DNA of 64,000 bases from Capsulimonas corticalis (GTDB taxonomy: Bacteria > Armatimonadota > Armatimonadia > Armatimonadales > Capsulimonadaceae). The translations under genes were made by a program, and so were the position numbers. Under the pieces are notes generated by a model. It ran no database searches. It was not told the origin of the DNA and saw only the letters and a list, made by a program, of their open reading frames with translations. Each line of letters opens with the position of its first letter. Position 1 is the first letter of the stretch. Of this stretch, positions 51,586 through 61,915 are shown one piece after another. The stretch lies in assembly GCF_003574315.2 (NCBI RefSeq), contig NZ_AP025739.1, positions 7,440,001-7,504,000 on the forward strand, written 5' to 3'.

Positions 51586-52407
51586 ATGCTCTTCAATTTT
51601 CGCCTCAAACCCACCGACAAGATTGCTCCCTGGAGTACTCCCAGCCGAAACAATTCTCTCAGCCTTCATTGGTTCGGCCTGACGGACGGCTGGTTTTGGA
51701 TCGACATCGGCGGCCAGCAGCCCTTTCGCTATTCGCAGGAAATCCTCAATCACTGGGCGCAAGAGCCGCAAGCCACGATCTCACCATTGCCATTTGACGA
51801 CTATCAGGTCACGCGATATTGGGAAGATCTGCTGGAACTGGTCCCCTCAATTCTCGATCCACTTCCCAGCGACTTAGCCACGCGAGTATCCGACGCCGAC
51901 GCATGGGGCCAATGGCGAGAACGCGCGGCTGAATGGCGTGAGACATCCGAGGACGAAACTTCCTGGGAGACTTACGAGACGGCGCTGCAATGGTGGTTCA
52001 GCCGTACCTGGAGCAATGGTCATCTTCGCATCCCGCCCAAGATTTGGCTATGGTCAACCGACGATCAAGTGCATATCCGCTGGGATTGCCGTGACATCTT
52101 GCAGGATGGAGTTCTCGTTTGGGACGCAAAACATGGCGAAGTCGCCATGCCTAAGAGAGACTTCATTCACGAGGTTCAGTCGTTCGGCGCACGCTTGATC
52201 GACACGATGGCGACGCGCGTTGACGAGATCAAGAAGCATTGGGCGCGCCCTGAAATCGCAATCGATATCCACTCTTTAGAGCAAGAACAAGATTATCGCG
52301 CGACGATTTGTGAGAACGCGCTTGGCCGCATCCATAGAGACTACGAATGGGACGACGTGCGCGCGGCGATAGCGCGTATGGAAGCGGAAATCGAATATCT
52401 TAAATGA
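51586..52407 (+). CDS. DUF5984-like hypothetical protein
   Basis: A 273-residue soluble protein. The opening (FRLKPTDKIAPW ... SLHWFGLTDGWFWIDIGGQQPFRYSQEIL) and WWFSRTWSNGHLRIPPKIWLWSTDDQVHIRWD resemble the uncharacterised DUF5984 family. The C-terminal third is helical and acidic. Not obviously catalytic. AAGGA lies about 10 bases upstream of the ATG. Its stop overlaps the next start (ATGA). These families are often found near polymorphic toxin or defence islands, but no toxin is visible here. Confidence 0.7.
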   Translation: MLFNFRLKPTDKIAPWSTPSRNNSLSLHWFGLTDGWFWIDIGGQQPFRYSQEILNHWAQEPQATISPLPFDDYQVTRYWEDLLELVPSILDPLPSDLATRVSDADAWGQWRERAAEWRETSEDETSWETYETALQWWFSRTWSNGHLRIPPKIWLWSTDDQVHIRWDCRDILQDGVLVWDAKHGEVAMPKRDFIHEVQSFGARLIDTMATRVDEIKKHWARPEIAIDIHSLEQEQDYRATICENALGRIHRDYEWDDVRAAIARMEAEIEYLK

Positions 52408-53000
52408 CGCACTACATTATTTTCCAGCGCACATTCGCCCATTGCATCACGGAACTCATCCAGGCCCCATCTCTCACGGAGGCGCTGGCGGCGTACGCCG
52501 TCAAAGAATGCGGCGCTAAAATCTGTGATGACGACTCCCTCATCGATACGACGGGAATAATTTATCCGCATTCCTTAGCGATGATCGAATCGAAGCGCAA
52601 AGCAGACCGAAAATATGATGAGCTACAGCTAGACGCCTCAGGAGGAGAACTCATCAATCACTCCAGTTGGGAAATACGAGAACTGCCGTCTGAAGCCTGG
52701 AACGCGCCGAGCGCAGATATATTTTGCAGCGCAAATCCGGACGAAGTCTCTGGATACATCCGTCTATGCCGCACGGAGTTTCGAAAGCAGTATCCAAGGT
52801 CACGCGCCCGCGCCTTCGTTTGGCATCTCGTGGACGGTCCGCTTGTGACATTTTATCAGGCGAGAGACCGGGATTACCGTCGCCCGATCAAAACTCTAAA
52901 ACGCTATTTGATACCCTGGAGCCAATGGCCGGATGTGCAGGAATACCAAGGGCCCCATCAAGATATCGTCGATCAGATGCACGTGCGGTTTCCGTTTTAG
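52404..53000 (+). CDS. Hypothetical protein coupled to the DUF5984-like gene
   Basis: A 198-residue protein I do not recognise. HYIIFQRTFAHCITELIQAPSLTEALAAYA at the N-terminus, then FRKQYPRSRARAFVWHLVDGPLVTFYQARDRDYRRPIKTLKRYLIPWSQWPDVQEY. It starts inside the stop of the preceding gene (4-base overlap), so the two products are probably made together. GC is slightly lower than that of the flanks. Confidence 0.65.
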   Translation: MTHYIIFQRTFAHCITELIQAPSLTEALAAYAVKECGAKICDDDSLIDTTGIIYPHSLAMIESKRKADRKYDELQLDASGGELINHSSWEIRELPSEAWNAPSADIFCSANPDEVSGYIRLCRTEFRKQYPRSRARAFVWHLVDGPLVTFYQARDRDYRRPIKTLKRYLIPWSQWPDVQEYQGPHQDIVDQMHVRFPF

Positions 53001-53060: not shown

Positions 53061-53543
53061 ATGAGCATCACTTATTCACGGAATATTTTGCTGATGGTCG
53101 GGGAGCTGCATCGGCGTGGGTATCAGCGGCTGCGGATTTCGCCGGGAATGTCGGCGTCAGGGGCGCATTGGCGGTGCGCGGTGACGCCGGTGTTGAATGT
53201 TTTGGCGGCGAATGGGGCCATGGCGGCGGACTGGAATTTGGCGGCGGTGTATTCCAGCAGTTCGCAGGGGCGGTATTTTCAGTGGGACGATGCGGAACAC
53301 TGCGATGCGGGCGGGTTGGCCCGGCTGTTTATCGCTCGATTTTCGGAGATATGCGAGGCCGGTTACGGGGCGGATTGGCTGTACGCCGGCTGGTATCTGG
53401 AGATGCTCCACCGGACCTATCCCGATTCGCTTCCCATTGCCTATCGTGATGACGAGGTGATGGACGGATCTCTCCGGGCAACGGGCGGCGACATTGTCAT
53501 ACCGCCGCCGCCTCCGGGTATGCGCTCGGGCGGATCTTCATGA
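53061..53543 (+). CDS. Conserved hypothetical protein
   Basis: A 160-residue protein. LMVGELHRRGYQRLRISPGMSASGAHWRCAVTPVLNV followed by VYSSSSQGRYFQWDDAEHCDAGGLARLFIARFSEI resembles a group of unnamed bacterial proteins. A Pro-rich tail (IPPPPPGMRSGGSS) ends it. 60 bases after the previous gene and probably in the same transcript. Confidence 0.65.
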   Translation: MSITYSRNILLMVGELHRRGYQRLRISPGMSASGAHWRCAVTPVLNVLAANGAMAADWNLAAVYSSSSQGRYFQWDDAEHCDAGGLARLFIARFSEICEAGYGADWLYAGWYLEMLHRTYPDSLPIAYRDDEVMDGSLRATGGDIVIPPPPPGMRSGGSS

Positions 53544-53685: not shown

Positions 53686-56199
53686 ATGCTGCGACTTGCG
53701 CTGTTGTTGATGGGGACGGATTTCGTGCGAAGGCGGTGGCGCGCGCTGTCGGTATTCGGCGCGATTTCACTGGTGCTCGGAGTCGCGTTGTTTATCGACG
53801 CCCTGGATGGCGTCATCTATTTCCCACTCAGAGCTTTTGGATTCGTCATGCTGCTGGAAGCGGCGGTGACGCTGGCGATCGTTCCCAAAGGGAGCCGGAC
53901 GATGCGGGCGCTGCGGTATGTCAAGGCGCTGCTTTCGGTGATCGTCGCGCTTTTGATTATCGGGCGCCAGCACCGTTTTGACATGGCGCTGGCGATCCTC
54001 TTTGGAGTGATCTTTACGCTGGACGGAGGACTGCGCATCGCGTCGGCGGCAGTCGTGCGCTTCCATGGCTGGCGGATGGCCGTCGGCGCCGGCGTGCTGG
54101 AGCTGCTGTTCGCGATCTTCCTTTTCGAGCCGCTGCCGACCTATTACGCCGGAACGGCGGAGTACTGCATCGGCGTTTGGCTGTTCCTTGCCGGATGGAG
54201 CATGCTGCGGCTCGCGCTGCGGCTCCGAGTGATCCCCGCCGGCGCGTCCGTGGCGCATCTGCTCAATCGCGGCAACGACGGACTGCCGCCCGTTTACCCC
54301 TTCGCGGATTCCGACACACCCGCTCCGCTTCCCCTGACAGTGCATGTCTGGACGGCTGCGGGGACTGCCGACAAGCCGCTGCGGCAGCCGGTCGTGGATC
54401 GTTACATCGCCGCCGTGGACGCGCAGGGCGTGGTCTCCACCGGCCATGCGGCGCTGGAGGCGCCGCCGGATCTCTACATCAGCCATTACCCTGCCGTCGA
54501 GATCGAGCACGATCCGGACGAATTTATGCGGATCCTGCGGGCGACGGACGAGAACAATGTTGAGGGGCTCTTTCAGCCAAGCTATCCCGAGGAAGCCGCC
54601 GGATGGTGCGAATCGACGCGCAAAATCGTCTTTTCCGAGTACGATTCCGTGCGGCTGCGCGCCTTTTGGGCCGACTACAGCCGCGACAACACCTACAACT
54701 TGACCTACCGAAACTGCTCCAGCACCGTGGTGCTGGCGCTGGAAACGGCGCTGGAGGGGGTCGCGGGGAAGAAGTGGGGCCGCAACTGGGCGACATTCGC
54801 GCGCGTTCTGCTCACGCCGGAACTGTGGGTCGCGGGGGAGATGTCCAAGCGCGGCGAGACGATGGCCTGGACCCCGGGGCTGGCGCTGGATTTTGTGCGC
54901 GCCATGCACACGATCGTCCATCCGCCAAACGACATTCCAACGTCGCTGACGCAAATGCTGCTGGAGCGGAGTGAACAGGTCCGCCGCTTGCGCGATCGCC
55001 ATAACAATCCGAGCGCGGAGCCGATGGAGACCGCCGAAACGGTCGATCTGGAGCTGGCGACGCCGCCGAACGGCAGGCGTCTCGCCTCCTCCGCCGCCGT
55101 GATCGCCGTCGCCGCGATCTTCGGGCTTTCGTACGGATTGACGTCGCCGCTGATCGCTTCGAATTTAGAGTCGCGGGGCGGCAGCGCGCTCTTGATCGGC
55201 TTGAATGCGGCGATGCATGCGCTGGGGGTGCTGCTGATCGCGCCGTTTCTGCCGCGATTGACGGCGCGCTTCGGCGCGCGGGCGCTGATCGTGACGGCGC
55301 TCGCCCTCAGCGCGTCGGTCCTGACGATCTTTCCGCACGTTTCCTGGATCTGGCTCTGGTTTCCCATGCGTCTGCTGCTGGGGATCGCCGCTGAAACTTT
55401 GTTTGTACTCTCGGAAACATGGACCAACGATCTGAGCGATGCGCGCTCGCGCGGCCAGATGATGGCGATCTACACCGCCGCCCTGTCCATCGGCTTCGCC
55501 GGCGGACCGGCGATCGTGTCGCTGGCCGGCCCCGGACGGATCGCGTATATGATCGGCGCGGCCCTCGCCGCGCTCGCCGCGATTCCCATCCTGCTGCCAT
55601 GGGTGCTGCCGCCGGCGCGGACACAGGCAGAAATCACCCAGCCCTGGCGATACCTTCAGCTTGCCCCCATCGCCATTGCGACCACGCTGCTGAACGCTGG
55701 TGTGGAGACGGCCGGTCTTTCCTTCATCGCGCTTTACGCCATGCACAACGGCTGGACCGAACGCTCCGGCCTGCGCCTGGTCTCCGTCCTGATGTTCGGC
55801 GCCGTCCTCTTGCAGCTTCCCATCGGATGGCTGGCCGATAAGGTCAACCCGCGCCGCCTCGCCCTGGCGCTCGCGATCCTTTCCACTCTCGGCGCGCTGC
55901 TCTGGCCCTTAACCTTGAGCACGGCCTGGATCGCTTACACGATGGCGTTTGTCTGGGGAGGCGTGTTCGTGGGGATCTACACGGTGATGCTGACAATTGT
56001 CGGCAGCCGGTTCCGAGGCGGCGATCTGGTGGGAGTTTACGCGATCATGAGCGTCGCCTGGGGCATCGGCGCGCTCGTCGGCCCGTTCCTCGTCGGCTCC
56101 GCCATGAGCGTCAGCCCAAAATACGGCTTCCCCTACGCCGTCGCGCTCGGCTGCGCCCTATTCGCGGGATTTATGGCGGTAAAGAGGACGGAGACGTGA
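53686..56199 (+). CDS. HdeD-like membrane domain / cysteine-hydrolase-like domain / MFS transporter fusion
   Basis: An 837-residue protein in three parts. Residues 1-185: about six helices in the HdeD/DUF308 pattern. Residues 205-430: a soluble domain with GHAALE (H254) and TYNLTYRNCSSTVVLALE (C344), a His/Cys arrangement like papain-like or DUF4105-type cysteine hydrolases; order His-then-Cys is as in circularly permuted or LRAT-like members. Residues 455-837: a 12-helix MFS transporter (SAAVIAVAAIFGLSYGLTSP ... GWLADKVNPRRLALALAIL). No frameshift is seen, so it is one polypeptide. Expected topology puts the middle domain in the cytoplasm if both flanking parts have even helix counts. Function unknown. 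Confidence 0.85.
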   Translation: MLRLALLLMGTDFVRRRWRALSVFGAISLVLGVALFIDALDGVIYFPLRAFGFVMLLEAAVTLAIVPKGSRTMRALRYVKALLSVIVALLIIGRQHRFDMALAILFGVIFTLDGGLRIASAAVVRFHGWRMAVGAGVLELLFAIFLFEPLPTYYAGTAEYCIGVWLFLAGWSMLRLALRLRVIPAGASVAHLLNRGNDGLPPVYPFADSDTPAPLPLTVHVWTAAGTADKPLRQPVVDRYIAAVDAQGVVSTGHAALEAPPDLYISHYPAVEIEHDPDEFMRILRATDENNVEGLFQPSYPEEAAGWCESTRKIVFSEYDSVRLRAFWADYSRDNTYNLTYRNCSSTVVLALETALEGVAGKKWGRNWATFARVLLTPELWVAGEMSKRGETMAWTPGLALDFVRAMHTIVHPPNDIPTSLTQMLLERSEQVRRLRDRHNNPSAEPMETAETVDLELATPPNGRRLASSAAVIAVAAIFGLSYGLTSPLIASNLESRGGSALLIGLNAAMHALGVLLIAPFLPRLTARFGARALIVTALALSASVLTIFPHVSWIWLWFPMRLLLGIAAETLFVLSETWTNDLSDARSRGQMMAIYTAALSIGFAGGPAIVSLAGPGRIAYMIGAALAALAAIPILLPWVLPPARTQAEITQPWRYLQLAPIAIATTLLNAGVETAGLSFIALYAMHNGWTERSGLRLVSVLMFGAVLLQLPIGWLADKVNPRRLALALAILSTLGALLWPLTLSTAWIAYTMAFVWGGVFVGIYTVMLTIVGSRFRGGDLVGVYAIMSVAWGIGALVGPFLVGSAMSVSPKYGFPYAVALGCALFAGFMAVKRTET

Positions 56200-56249
56200 C
56201 AACCCGCCCCCCGGCGGTTCGGCCGCCCCCTCCCTGGCAAACCCACCCC

Positions 56250-56451
56250 GGCGCCGTTGCAAACCTGCCTCCGGGGCAAACCCACCCCCGGCCTTCGGCC
56301 GCCCCCTCCCGCCGACGGGAAGGGTTTGTAGGATTGCCTCTTACGAGAGTCGTCTACGATAACACACTCTGAATAACCCTTCCCGTCGGCGGGAGGGGTG
56401 GCGCGAAGCGCCGGGGTGGGTTTGCCCCGGAGGCAGGTTTGCAACGGCGCC
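56250..56451. repeat. Inverted repeat with 77-bp arms
   Basis: Left arm 56250-56326 is complementary to right arm 56375-56451 apart from a few positions in the middle of the arms. Outer ends are GGCGCCGTTGC and GCAACGGCGCC, inner ends AAGGGTT and AACCCTT, and the loop of 48 bases contains ACGAGAGTCGT. Located between two convergent genes. Not an insertion sequence: it has no coding capacity. Confidence 0.85.
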
Positions 56452-56483
56452 GGAGGCCAGGGGAGGTCGCCTTGGCGTTGGTC

Positions 56484-58706
56484 TTACGCCAGCATCTGTA
56501 GCCCGGCCATCGCGCTGCGCGTGTGCGCGTCCTCATCATCGTCGCCGATGGAGCTGACTTTGGCGTGGACGTCGCCGATGGTCGTCAGACCCTGCGCGGC
56601 TTTTTCGAGGCCGTCGGCGAACATCGTCACCATGCCGCCTCGGATGGCCGCCTGGCGGATGTCCTTGGTGTCGGACGCCTGCATGATCAGCTTGCGGATA
56701 TCGCGATCCACCGTCAGAACTTCATGCACCGCGAGGCGGCCTTTGGTTCCCTGATTGTCGCATTGCGGGCACCCGGCGGGTTCATAGACGAAGTTAGGCG
56801 CGTCGCCGGCGTACTGGGCGGCGGTGGCGGGCTCCACGGGCACTTCGCGGCGGCAGTGCGGGCAGAGGCGGCGCACCAGTCGCTGGGCGATCGAGCCGAT
56901 CAGAGTCGAGGCGATCAGATACTCAGGAATTCCCATGTCCAGCAGGCGGCTGACCGCGCCGGCGGCTTCGTTGCAGTGCAGCGTGCTCAGCACGAGGTGG
57001 CCGGTCAGTGAGGCGCGCATGGCGATCTCGGCGGTCTCGGCGTCGCGGATCTCTCCGACCAGAACGACGTCGGGGTCCTGGCGCAGAATGGCGCGCAGCT
57101 GCCGGGCGAAGGTCAGGCCGGCGCGCTCGTTGACGGCGGACTGGCTGATCCCTTCCAGCTCATACTCGATCGGATCCTCGCACGTAATGATATTGCGGCG
57201 GCCGGCGACGCCAGGCGACGAGGTGGATTTCAGGGCGTTCAGCGCGGCGTAAAGCGTGGACGTTTTTCCGGAGCCGGTCGGTCCCGTCACCAGGATCAGT
57301 CCGTGCGGCTTGTTGATCAAGTCCTGGAAGTCGGCGGCGTTCTTGCCGGTGAAGCCGATCTGCTCCAGGGAAAGGCAGGCGTTGGCGCGGTCCAGGATTC
57401 GCATGGCGACGCGCTCGCCGTAGTGCGTGGGCAGCGTCGAGATGCGCAGGTCGATCGGCCGGCCATGGATTCGCAGGGCGATACGGCCGTCGAGCGGAAG
57501 CCGGCGCTCGGAGATATCCATGTCCGCCATGATCTTGATGCGCGATGTCGTCGGCGCCAGGAACTGGCGCGGAACGGTGCGGATCGGCTGAAGCCGGCCG
57601 TCGATCCGATAAAGGATCTGGAAGTTGCGCTTCTGCGGCTCGATATGGATGTCCGAGGTGCGCCGCGCGACGGCGTCGGCGAACAGCGTGTTGACGAAAC
57701 GAATGATCGGCGCCTGATCGCTCTGGCGCATCAGCTCCGCCGTATCGATCTCGTCGGCCAGATCTTCGGACAGCAAGTCCGTGGCGGCCGCCTGGATCGA
57801 ATCCGAAAGGACATCCTCCTGGGCGTCGCTATCCACGCCGTGATACGCCTGCTCGATCGCCTCCATCAGCTCGGGCTTGCTGGCGAGGTACGGCTCGACG
57901 CGGCGGCGCGTGGTGCGCTGCACCAGGTCGATCGCCTCAATGTCCCAGGGATTCACCATCGCGAGACGCAGGCGTCCCATCTCCGAGCCTTCGAAGTCCT
58001 GGACGGAGAGCGGAAGCATTTGATGGCGGCGGGCGGTGTCGAACGGCACGAGGGCCAGCACGAACGGATCGGGGGTCTCGCGCTCCACAGCGACAAACGG
58101 CACATCCATCTGGCGGCTGCGCGCCTGCGTGATATGCGTCTCGGTCACCCACCCATGCGCCAGCAAAATCGCGCCCAGGCGCTCCCGGCTCTGCGTCTGC
58201 TCCGTCAGCGCCTGATGCAGCTGCTCGGGCGTGATCACGCCGTGATCCACCAGCAGATTGCCCAGCTGCATGTGCTGCTCGCGCAGTTCGCCGCTCAGAC
58301 TTTCGAGCTGGCCGGTGTTCAGCTTCAGCTCATCCTTCATCTTCAGGATGCGCTGCGCGACCTCGATGCGGGCGACCAGCTCGGCGGAGTCCAGCGGCTT
58401 CACCAAGAAGTCGTCGATCCCGGCGTCCAGCGCCTCCGTGCGGTCCTCGGCGTTGCCTTTGACGGTCAGCAAAATCAGATAGACGTACGGCGCGCCCTCG
58501 CGCATCCGGATGCGATGGCAGAGCTCCAGTCCATCCATCTGCGGCATCATCCAGTCGGAAAGGACCAGCCGGAACGCGCCGTTCTGCAGCGCGGTCCACG
58601 CCTTGGCGCCGTTTGTCTCCACGGTGACTTCGTGACCCATCCGCTCCAGCGCCTTGCGCAGAACGAGCGCGGAGATCGGATCGTCTTCGGCAATCAAGAT
58701 TTTCAT
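56484..58706 (-). CDS. Receiver-domain fused type II secretion/type IV pilus ATPase (PilB/GspE)
   Basis: A 740-residue protein. Residues 1-120 are a response-regulator receiver with phospho-acceptor D51 (LVLSDWMMPQMDG) and K103. A helical linker follows, then a GspE/MshE N-terminal domain (about 140-290: LLVDHGVITPEQLHQALTEQ). The ATPase occupies 325-700: Walker A GPTGSGKTS 475-483, Asp box region, Walker B VVLVGEIRD, His box and a zinc site C615/C618/C646/C649. All catalytic elements are present. The gene overlaps the hybrid kinase stop by four bases (ATGA), so the kinase and this ATPase are made together and may form one phosphorelay. Confidence 0.92.
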   Translation of the reverse strand: MKILIAEDDPISALVLRKALERMGHEVTVETNGAKAWTALQNGAFRLVLSDWMMPQMDGLELCHRIRMREGAPYVYLILLTVKGNAEDRTEALDAGIDDFLVKPLDSAELVARIEVAQRILKMKDELKLNTGQLESLSGELREQHMQLGNLLVDHGVITPEQLHQALTEQTQSRERLGAILLAHGWVTETHITQARSRQMDVPFVAVERETPDPFVLALVPFDTARRHQMLPLSVQDFEGSEMGRLRLAMVNPWDIEAIDLVQRTTRRRVEPYLASKPELMEAIEQAYHGVDSDAQEDVLSDSIQAAATDLLSEDLADEIDTAELMRQSDQAPIIRFVNTLFADAVARRTSDIHIEPQKRNFQILYRIDGRLQPIRTVPRQFLAPTTSRIKIMADMDISERRLPLDGRIALRIHGRPIDLRISTLPTHYGERVAMRILDRANACLSLEQIGFTGKNAADFQDLINKPHGLILVTGPTGSGKTSTLYAALNALKSTSSPGVAGRRNIITCEDPIEYELEGISQSAVNERAGLTFARQLRAILRQDPDVVLVGEIRDAETAEIAMRASLTGHLVLSTLHCNEAAGAVSRLLDMGIPEYLIASTLIGSIAQRLVRRLCPHCRREVPVEPATAAQYAGDAPNFVYEPAGCPQCDNQGTKGRLAVHEVLTVDRDIRKLIMQASDTKDIRQAAIRGGMVTMFADGLEKAAQGLTTIGDVHAKVSSIGDDDEDAHTRSAMAGLQMLA

Positions 58707-61700
58707 GCGGCGAGCTCCTGCTCCGGCTGCTTCAATACGGATTCAATCACCGCGCACAGGCGCTCGAACTCCTCGGAGGCCAGCGCGAAATCGGCGTCGG
58801 CGTTGGCGAGATCGCCGGCTTTGCCGGCCTGCTCCAAACGCATGGAGACATCGGCCAGCGCATCCGCTCCCAGCGTCCGGCAGCTGCCTTTCAGGGTGTG
58901 CGCCTCAAACGAGACGCGCCCGCCGTCCCGGTCCGCGACGGCTGCTTCCAGCCGCCCCAGGATCTCCGGCGTTGCGTCCAGGAACATCTCCAGAACCTCG
59001 CGGACCAGATCGGAATCCTCGCCGCAGCTTTCGAAGAGATGGTCCATGCGTAAGATAGAATTCTCGTCATTGTTCATTGTCGATGCATTCATCGTCTTTT
59101 CGTTCCTCATCGAGTTACTTCCCCAGCGCGCCAAGGCCGCATAGAGCTCGTCCGGTTTGACCGGCTTTCCAATATAGTCGTCCATTCCGCTCGCCAGGCA
59201 GTGTTCGCGATCGCCCTGCATCGTATGCGCGGTCATGGCGACCACGGCCAAACGATCGCCCGTGATCTGCTCCTGGCGGCGCAGACGCCCGACCGCCTCC
59301 AGCCCGTCCATCCCCGGCATCTGGACATCCATCAGAACCACATCGTATCGCTTCCGCGAAATGGCGCGAAGCGCCTCGGCGCCGTCGCCCACGGCGTCCG
59401 CCGCGCAGCCCCACTTTTCCAGCAGACGCAGCGCGAGCTTGCGATTCACGGCGTTGTCCTCCGCGAGCAGAACCCGCAGGTTCAAGCGGCCCATCGCCGC
59501 CGGCGCAATCACCGCCCGCTCCCGCACCTGATCCAAACGGATCAGGCTGAGACGGATCCAGAACGTGCTGCCGGAGCCGGAGACGCTTTCCAGGCCGATC
59601 TGTCCGCCCATCAGCTCCGTCAGCTGCCGGCAGATCGTCAGGCCCAGTCCCGTGCCGCCGTATTTGCGGGTGACGCTTCCATCGGCCTGCGTAAAGCTTT
59701 CGAACACGGCGGCCTGGCGCTCGGGGGGGATGCCGATGCCGGTATCCCGCACGGAGATTTGCAGATCCGTATGCGATTCCGTGACTTGCAGAGGAACCAC
59801 CGCGATGGAGACTTCGCCGCGCTCGGTAAATTTGACGGCGTTGCTCACCAGGTTTGTTACGATCTGCCGGATCCGGCCGCCGTCGCCGCGCAGGAAGCTT
59901 GGGAACTCCGGCGGCATGGCGTATGTGATCTTCAGCCCCTTCCCCTGCGCGTGCGGCGTCATCAGATCGACGACTTCCTCCAGCACGGAGCGCAGATCGA
60001 AGTCCGCCGATTCGATCGTCATCTTTCCGGCTTCGATCTTGCTGAAGTCGAGAATATCGTTGATGATCGTCAGCAGCGCATTGCCGCTATTCTGGATCGT
60101 CCGCGCGTAATCCATCTGCTCTTCACTGAGCGGAGTGTCCAGCAGCAGCCCGGTCATGCCGATGACGCCGTTCATGGGCGTGCGGATCTCATGGCTCATG
60201 TTGGCCAGAAATTCGGACTTGGCCTGCGTGGACGCCAGCGCCTGATTGCGCGCCTGCGTCAGCTCATCGGTCTGGGCGCGCAGCAGGTCCGCCGTCGCCT
60301 CCAGCTCCTCCAACGCCTGTGTCTGTCCCGCCAGCAGCTCGCGCTTTTCTTCGTAATCCGAGACCCGGGAAATGGCTGCGCCCATCAATCCCGCCATCAA
60401 TTGCAGCGTCTGCAAGTCTCGCGTATTGAAGGCGCGCGGATCGGCCGACGACGCCTTCAATACGCCGATCGTCTGCCGGTCGCGGTGCAGCGGCACGACA
60501 ATCATGGATCGGATGTTCAGTTTTCGGCAGGCGTCGGCGTTGACCCTAGGATCGACCAGGGCGTCGTCGCACCAGAGCGCCTGATCTTCGCGGACGCATC
60601 GTCCCGAGAGGCTCTCGCCTATCTTCAGTCGAAGGCCGACATTGCTCGAAACTGAGCCGCACGCCGCCCGGTAGAACAGTTCATCTCCCTCGGCGAGCTC
60701 CACGACGGCGCCATGCGCCCTGGTCAACTCCATGGTGCGCGCGACGATGAGATTGAGCGTTCCGTCAAGTTCAAAGTCCGCCGTCGCGATCTCATACTGC
60801 GTTTCGATGATCGACGCCGAGCGCTCCGCGTCGTCGTTCAGGGCCGCCTCGACCCGCCGTCGCTCCGCGATCTCTTCATGCAGCTCCTGATTGATCGCCG
60901 CCAGCTCCACGGTGCGGTCATTCACCCGCAGCTCCAGCTCATCGTGCGTGCGGCGCAGGGTCTCTTCCGCCTGCTTGTAGTCGTCGATATCGGTGCAGGT
61001 CCCAACCCAGTACAGCACTTCCTTGTCCGGGCCGAGGAATGGGTAGGCCCGTCCGAGATGCCATCGGTACTGGTTGTCCGCCCCGCGCCGCAAGCGGTAT
61101 TCGACTTCATAGTCGCCGCCGGTTTCAACCGCCCGCGACCAGCGCCTGGCGCAGTTTTCGAAATCGTTGGGGTGGATCACGTCTTTCCAGCCCCAGTCTT
61201 TCGTCTGCACGAACGTCATCCCGGTGTAGTCATACCACCGCTGATTGTAATAGTCCAGGTTGCCGTCTGGACGAGAGGTCCAGACGATCTGCGGCATCAT
61301 ATCGGCTAAAAATCGGTACTGCGCTTCGCGCGCCTGGAGCTCGTGATAAAGGTTCTGAAGATCGCGTGTGCGTTCATCGACCCGGGTCTCCAGCTCAAGG
61401 TTCTTATACTCAAGGACGACATTGTAGTCCTGAATCTGCTGCGCCTGGGAAGTGATCTTGTCCTCGGCTTGGCGGCGGTCGGTGATATCCCGAACCGTCG
61501 TCACACGCGCGCGGCGCCCCCGGTAGCTCAACGTTCGCCCGCGGATCTCCGCGGCGAACGTCGTTCCGTCGCGCCGCGCCATCCGGATCTCGTATGGCGT
61601 CTCCATCCCGGCGGCGGCGTTCGCGAGCGCCAGCTCGCGGTCTTCCGGAATGACGAGCATCAACCCCGGCTGACCGATCGCCTCATGTCGCTCGTAGCCC

Positions 61701-61915
61701 AGAATATCGACGAAGTGGCGGTTGACATCGACAATCCGGCCTTGCTCGCTGATGACGATCGCTTCGTACGACGCGTTTGAGAAGGTGCGGAATCGCGCCA
61801 GCGCCGCCAGCGCGGGCCGCGCTTTAGCGCCAAGCAGAGATCGGCCGTGGTTCTGCGACCGCCGTATGCGCTTCAAATTCCGTCCATATATCTCTTGCTG
61901 GTTCATAGCGTCCAA
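58703..61915 (-). CDS. Hybrid sensor histidine kinase PAS-PAS-GAF-HK-REC-HPt
   Basis: A 1070-residue soluble hybrid kinase. PAS1 at about 42-150 and PAS2 with PAC at 195-315, coiled linkers, GAF at 375-515, DHp with phospho-His H575 ([13 protein letters not shown]), HATPase 655-795 (N box [25 protein letters not shown]), receiver 812-930 with D863, and HPt with H1006 ([12 protein letters not shown]). The GAF part is close in sequence to that of the sensor at 22709-23860. No membrane helices. It is followed by the receiver-PilB fusion with ATGA overlap, the likely output of the HPt. Confidence 0.93.

What the first reader, a model, noticed from the sequence alone, without database searches (positions are those of the whole stretch)
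53686..56199. HdeD-like / cysteine-hydrolase-like / MFS triple fusion
One uninterrupted frame joins an HdeD/DUF308-type membrane domain, a soluble domain with a GHAALE and an NCSS motif suggestive of a Cys-His hydrolase, and a complete MFS carrier. A hydrolase between two membrane modules suggests processing of a cargo coupled to its export or import. The function is unknown to me.
Basis: partly seen in the sequence, partly recalled or inferred. Interest (0 to 1): 0.6.

Follow-up and report, generated by a model that had tools for sequence, protein, structure and literature searches.

The report
Membrane-tethered acyltransferase-like enzyme fused to transporter
A single bacterial gene joins a membrane anchor, a cysteine-histidine enzyme of a fold whose characterised relatives mostly move or cut fatty-acyl chains, and a membrane transporter; in Pseudomonadota the enzyme and the transporter are two separate genes that often sit side by side, so the fusion points to an enzyme and a pump that work together on one, still unidentified, probably lipid-like product.

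Summary
The ORF is real: 53686..56199 encodes 837 aa with no break. It holds six N-terminal TM helices (HdeD-like), a soluble Cys-His domain and a 12-TM MFS carrier. H254 and C344 are invariant in the family alignments. AlphaFold places C344 at the start of a helix and H254 on a strand. The top structural matches are all circularly permuted papain-like enzymes: the RID effector domain (Z 8.2), PPPDE1 and DeSI. Pfam Lnb_N (DUF4105, lipoprotein N-acyltransferase) is a distant sequence relative. The positive-inside pattern puts the enzyme on the cytosolic face.

The module is not unique. It occurs in about 4% of sampled Pseudomonadota genomes as its own ~440-aa gene, variously annotated 'protease', 'MFS transporter' or 'HdeD acid-resistance protein'. 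A separate homologous MFS gene adjoins it in 20 of 94 loci, in three arrangements. No relative examined is fused. The window's genome is the only carrier among 291 of its phylum, so the pair was probably acquired from a Rhodanobacteraceae-like donor and then fused.

Best explanation: a membrane-anchored thiol acyltransferase or acyl-hydrolase at the inner leaflet, whose product or lysolipid by-product the MFS half moves. Substrate and direction are inferred. Verdict: a new variant (fusion) of a widespread, uncharacterised gene pair.

The parts
53686..56199 (+). 837-aa fused gene: HdeD-like anchor, permuted papain-like Cys-His enzyme, MFS carrier
   Evidence: uninterrupted ORF; full-length model mean pLDDT 83.7, pTM 0.54; coding-like GC3 throughout
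53686..54255 (+). HdeD-like module, residues 1-190, six TM helices (18-41, 48-64, 71-93, 96-124, 129-147, 157-182), N-in/C-in
   Evidence: model; mean K+R per loop in family 3.2/0.05/2.7/0.16/2.8/0.16/3.5
54328..55005 (+). circularly permuted papain-like Cys-His domain, residues 215-440, predicted cytosolic
   Evidence: model and VIA matches 5xn7 Z 8.2, 3ebq 6.8, 2wp7 6.3; Lnb_N in relatives
54445..54447 (+). H254, putative catalytic histidine (GHAALE)
   Evidence: invariant in A1, A3, A9
54715..54717 (+). C344, putative catalytic cysteine (YNLTxRNCSS), N-terminus of helix 344-356
   Evidence: invariant in A1, A3, A9; secondary structure
55006..55068 (+). linker, residues 441-461, low confidence at 445-458; M447 could serve as an internal start
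55069..56196 (+). MFS carrier, residues 462-837, 12 TM helices
   Evidence: PF07690 E 5.5e-36; 49-66% identity to separate MFS genes adjoining the enzyme gene elsewhere; model

Best explanation
The gene is a fused form of a conserved two-gene unit. The N-terminal half is a membrane-anchored cysteine-histidine enzyme of the circularly permuted papain-like group (RID/IcsB, Lnb/DUF4105, LRAT, PPPDE), facing the cytosol at the inner leaflet. The C-terminal half is the MFS carrier that is its neighbour elsewhere. Proposed mechanism: C344, activated by H254, takes a fatty-acyl chain (from a phospholipid, acyl-CoA or acyl-ACP) as a thioester. It passes the chain to an amine or hydroxyl acceptor, or to water. 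The MFS half then flips or exports the acylated product or the lysolipid by-product, and the fusion holds enzyme and carrier together at one to one. Shown: the frame, the domain layout, conservation of H254 and C344, linkage to and co-inheritance with the MFS. Predicted: permuted papain-like fold, cytosolic side. Inferred: acyl chemistry, substrate, direction of transport.
For: Fold: the domain model (pLDDT 80) is matched best by the MARTX RID effector domain (Z 8.2, 136 residues), then PPPDE1 (6.8) and DeSI (6.3), with H-REV107 at 4.0; all are circularly permuted papain-like. hmmsearch of the family against the PDB puts the same RID chain first (E 0.3 and 0.19; not significant alone). Sequence: Lnb_N (DUF4105) matches 16 of 23 members at E up to 0.1, best 3.2e-5; one full-length relative is above the gathering score, 22.5 vs 22.2. 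DUF4105 is a lipoprotein N-acyltransferase and its sister Tox-Act1 a phospholipase (PMC12994826); RID and IcsB are lysine N-fatty-acyltransferases (PMC10924143, PMC13059803). Neighbours: MFS in 20 of 94 loci; lysophospholipase-L2-like S33 hydrolase beside it in 10 Herbaspirillum loci, overlapping in some; an Lnb_N gene in 7; a patatin in one. Topology: textbook positive-inside pattern, N-in and C-in. Co-inheritance: the same nearest relatives in both trees, distance correlation r 0.91 over 20 pairs.
Against: No enzymatic data. The window domain itself has no Pfam match at E 0.1 or better. Foldseek gave no significant match, and Z near 8 can reflect a common arrangement. hhalign against three neighbouring Lnb_N proteins found nothing beyond the NC(S/T) motif. 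Lnb acts in the periplasm, whereas this domain is predicted cytosolic. Permuted papain-like folds also include isopeptidases (DeSI) and amidases (YiiX/C92). The MFS is YcaD-like by best NCBIfam hit (below cut-off), with no match to an LplT model, so a lipid substrate for it is not supported by sequence. Many loci have no MFS nearby (74 of 94).
Confidence: 0.5

Rival explanations
1. Cargo-processing exporter: the Cys-His domain is a peptidase or amidase that trims a peptide or small molecule on the cytosolic side, and the MFS exports the result, by analogy with C39 peptidase-ABC exporters.
For: Permuted papain-like folds include isopeptidases (DeSI 2wp7, Z 6.3; PPPDE1 3ebq, Z 6.8); cytosolic placement next to a carrier; some relatives are annotated 'protease'.
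Against: No conserved small ORF or peptide gene emerged among neighbours; recurrent neighbours are lipid-active (lysophospholipase-like, Lnb_N, patatin). Best structural match is the RID acyltransferase.
Confidence: 0.2
2. Isopeptidase or deacylase regulator: the domain removes an acyl or isopeptide modification from proteins or from the carrier itself, gating the MFS; HdeD is the anchor.
For: PPPDE/DeSI similarity; the enzyme occurs without an adjacent MFS in most loci, so its function need not be transport of its own product.
Against: No target or matching transferase gene identified; co-inheritance with the MFS where present is strong.
Confidence: 0.12
3. The fusion has no functional meaning: it is a two-gene operon whose stop codon was lost (or misread in the assembly), possibly still giving a separate MFS from an internal start such as M447.
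For: All of 94 loci and 16 sampled genomes have separate genes; in L021 the two genes are in one frame, separated by one TGA and 18 bases; M447 has GGAG just upstream.
Against: GC3 of the linker (0.78) matches coding sequence on both sides and no frameshift is visible. This rival does not remove the gene-pair explanation; it only lowers the weight of the fusion itself. Only one genome is available.
Confidence: 0.15

Closest known systems
RID domain of Vibrio MARTX toxins and IcsB/BopA-type N-epsilon-lysine fatty-acyltransferases (k-FAT)
   Same: Best structural match (5xn7, Z 8.2); His before Cys in a permuted papain-like fold; acts at the cytosolic face of a membrane (PMC10924143). From memory, Pei and Grishin 2009 (cited there, not held) linked RID to 'a group of uncharacterized bacterial membrane proteins', which may be this family.
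   Different: Chromosomal and plasmid genes in free-living bacteria with their own TM anchor and an MFS partner, not secreted effectors; sequence similarity to RID not significant alone; third catalytic residue not identified.
Lnb / DUF4105 (PF13387) lipoprotein N-acyltransferase of Bacteroides; Tox-Act1 phospholipase toxin
   Same: Weak but recurrent sequence match of relatives; same permuted NlpC/P60 class with conserved His and Cys (PMC12994826); real Lnb_N genes adjoin this gene in 7 loci.
   Different: Window protein itself does not match; predicted cytosolic, not periplasmic; fused to HdeD-like and MFS modules.
LplT-Aas lysophospholipid remodelling system
   Same: MFS carrier plus membrane-surface acyltransferase in one operon, apparently fused into one ORF in some bacteria (PMC11416262).
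   Different: Acyltransferase fold unrelated to PlsC/Aas; MFS is YcaD-like by best hit, no match to an LplT model.
HdeD/DUF308 membrane proteins
   Same: Six-TM module at the N-terminus; RefSeq names the E. coli relative 'HdeD family acid-resistance protein'.
   Different: DUF308 scores below cut-off; the enzyme domain makes an acid-resistance role an unsafe transfer of annotation.

Membership tests
Major Facilitator Superfamily (PF07690) | MFS_1 profile above gathering score | tested here: met
   124.6 vs 33.4 bits, residues 474-800
Major Facilitator Superfamily (PF07690) | 12 TM helices with MFS fold | tested here: met
   12 TM helices 462-832; Z about 40 to Spns2, VMAT, NorA
Circularly permuted papain-like (PPPDE/LRAT/RID/Lnb group) | His before Cys, Cys at start of a helix, His on a strand, both invariant | tested here: met
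Circularly permuted papain-like (PPPDE/LRAT/RID/Lnb group) | fold match to solved members | tested here: met
   RID 8.2, PPPDE1 6.8, DeSI 6.3 at top of VIA list; Foldseek alone not significant
Circularly permuted papain-like (PPPDE/LRAT/RID/Lnb group) | third polar catalytic residue | tested here: inconclusive
   S266 is invariant, 12 residues after H254; assignment is only inference
DUF4105 / Lnb_N (PF13387) | profile above gathering score | tested here: not met
   window protein: no match at E 0.1 and none in its genome; relative L016 22.5 vs 22.2 bits
DUF4105 / Lnb_N (PF13387) | periplasmic catalytic domain | tested here: not met
   positive-inside pattern predicts cytosolic domain
RID/IcsB k-FAT | significant sequence homology | tested here: inconclusive
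   5xn7 first but E 0.3 and 0.19
RID/IcsB k-FAT | lysine N-fatty-acylation activity | not testable with these tools
   needs biochemistry
HdeD/DUF308 (PF03729) | profile above gathering score | tested here: not met
   no match for window; relatives 17.5 and 12 vs 25 bits
LplT-Aas | LplT-type MFS and PlsC acyltransferase | tested here: not met
   no LplT model or PlsC domain among hits

The most novel reading that the evidence does not exclude
The family is a resident bacterial counterpart of the toxin-type fatty-acyltransferases (RID/IcsB): an inner-membrane, cytosol-facing enzyme that fatty-acylates a bacterial amine (a protein lysine, amino acid or lipid head group) and hands the product or lysolipid to a dedicated MFS, fused here into one acyltransferase-flippase protein.
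Probability: 0.2. Interest if true: 0.75.

Novelty: new variant of a known kind. Interest (0 to 1): 0.42.

Why it matters
If the acyl-transfer reading holds, hundreds of genes now annotated as HdeD, DUF308, protease, TctB or even MFS would be renamed as membrane-bound acyl enzymes with a transporter partner. The toxin-type fatty-acyltransferases would then have a possible non-toxin relative in ordinary bacteria to study. The fusion is useful as a Rosetta-stone link saying that enzyme and carrier act on one pathway, and it gives a single-polypeptide target for purification.

Tried and rejected
Foldseek of the enzyme domain against PDB and viral models gave nothing significant. hhalign against three Lnb_N neighbours found only the NC motif, too few sequences. 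NlpC/P60 and LRAT Pfam models did not match at E 1; their absence from a fold list is no exclusion. Joint alignments of the fused protein with separate enzyme and MFS rows misaligned twice (A2, A4) until a read-through row bridged the halves (A6). A8 contained one row in the wrong frame and was replaced by A9. Broad genome samples for fused relatives found none. Anti-phage defence models do not match the gene or its neighbours. The MAG labelled Eremiobacteraeota (L039) is likely mislabelled: its gene groups with Dyella and its phylum draw lists the same genomes as the Pseudomonadota draw. The MFS structural hits to lysolipid carriers (Spns1, Spns2) are close to tied with VMAT and NorA and say nothing on substrate. 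Pei and Grishin 2009 is not held.

Full report
THE OBSERVATION. The ORF 53686..56199 (+) is uninterrupted and encodes 837 aa. Pfam finds only the MFS half (124.6 bits). GC3 is flat across HdeD part, enzyme, linker and MFS (0.79, 0.82, 0.78, 0.84), which supports one coding frame through the junction.

RELATIVES. The enzyme domain was found in only the window's genome among 291 genomes of its phylum, but tblastn found 44 plasmid records at E 1e-3, with aligned stretches at about 50-60% identity among the best rows. The 80 loci kept lie almost entirely in Pseudomonadota. An even sample gave 16 of 398 Pseudomonadota genomes. The protein is annotated inconsistently: protease, MFS transporter, TctB family, DUF4105, HdeD family acid-resistance protein.

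NOT FUSED ELSEWHERE. In all 94 loci examined the enzyme is its own gene, and none of the 16 sampled genomes has an open frame long enough for a fusion. A homologous MFS gene adjoins it in 20 of 94 loci: 11 upstream and 7 downstream on the same strand, 2 convergent. These separate MFS proteins are 49-66% identical to the window's MFS half for the genome-derived loci. In L021 the two genes lie in the same frame, separated by one TGA and 18 bases, which shows how short the path to a fusion is. Trees of the two halves agree: the window sits beside Rhodanobacter L019 and near L021, L027 and L042, all with the enzyme-then-MFS order. Pairwise distances of enzyme and MFS correlate at r 0.91 over 20 pairs; shared descent of species contributes to that figure. 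Presence in one genome of its phylum plus nesting near Rhodanobacteraceae suggests horizontal acquisition followed by fusion (inference).

ACTIVE SITE AND FOLD. H254 and C344 are invariant in 14 diverse relatives and in 23 domain sequences. C308 (in the WC motif) and S266 are also invariant. The domain model (pLDDT 80.4, pTM 0.76) has H254 at the start of a strand and C344 at the start of a helix. VIA-align's best matches are RID of a MARTX toxin (5xn7, Z 8.2, 136 residues), PPPDE1 (6.8), DeSI (6.3) and lower H-REV107 (4.0), all permuted papain-like. Foldseek alone was not significant, and Z around 8 is at the edge of what unrelated models reach, so the agreement of the top three on one fold class matters more than any one score. 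hmmsearch ranks the same RID chain first but without significance. Pfam Lnb_N (DUF4105) matches 16 of 23 members, best E 3.2e-5, and one relative passes the gathering score.

TOPOLOGY. Mean K+R counts around the six N-terminal helices alternate 3.2, 0.05, 2.7, 0.16, 2.8, 0.16, 3.5, the pattern for N-in and C-in. The enzyme is therefore predicted cytosolic, which also fits the cytosolic N-terminus of an MFS. This differs from Lnb, whose domain is periplasmic.

NEIGHBOURS. Besides MFS, recurrent neighbours are an S33 hydrolase whose best NCBIfam match is lysophospholipase L2 (10 Herbaspirillum loci, some overlapping), an Lnb_N gene (7 loci in Serratia, Yersinia, Silvimonas, Cedecea, Ochrobactrum), a patatin (Ochrobactrum), MASE1 and SMR genes in enterics. 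Lipid-active neighbours recur, though several are confined to one genus and some may be chance.

MECHANISM. The literature describes DUF4105/Lnb as a lipoprotein N-acyltransferase and its sister Tox-Act1 as a phospholipase (PMC12994826), and RID/IcsB as lysine N-fatty-acyltransferases (PMC10924143, PMC13059803). The LplT-Aas system is a precedent for an MFS and a membrane-surface acyltransferase that are fused in some bacteria (PMC11416262). On that basis a membrane-tethered thiol acyltransferase or acyl-hydrolase, with the MFS moving its product or lysolipid by-product, is the most likely reading (about 0.5). The chemistry, acceptor, donor and direction are inferred.

NOVELTY. The gene family is widespread and, as far as I could find, uncharacterised. 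From memory, kinship of RID with uncharacterised bacterial membrane proteins was noted in 2009, but that paper could not be read here. The fusion is so far seen in one genome.

Noticed in passing
window 56205-56460: Long imperfect palindrome downstream of the gene (79-nt arms, 91% complementary, 48-nt loop). About 40 dispersed similar copies were scored in the same genome, mostly at 80-95% identity, with 155 candidates in the first look: a REP/MITE-like repeat family.
   Followed up: partly
window 56484-58706 (-): Response-regulator receiver domain fused to MshEN and a type II/IV secretion or pilus ATPase (T2SSE), overlapping a hybrid histidine kinase with PAS, GAF, receiver and Hpt domains at 58703-61915.
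   Followed up: no
L053, L054, L055, L068, L091, L007, L005: A stand-alone Lnb_N (DUF4105) gene lies next to the HdeD-enzyme gene; two that were read (L053, L007) start without an obvious signal peptide, unlike the 'periplasmic' family name.
   Followed up: partly
L039 (CAJCJD010000141.1): MAG contig titled Candidatus Eremiobacteraeota carries a Dyella-like gene pair; its phylum draw lists the same genomes as the Pseudomonadota draw, so the record title is probably wrong.
   Followed up: partly
window 51586-52404 (+): DUF5984 protein (281 bits) followed by two unannotated short ORFs (52404-53000, 53061-53543) upstream of the fusion; no defence-model match.
   Followed up: no
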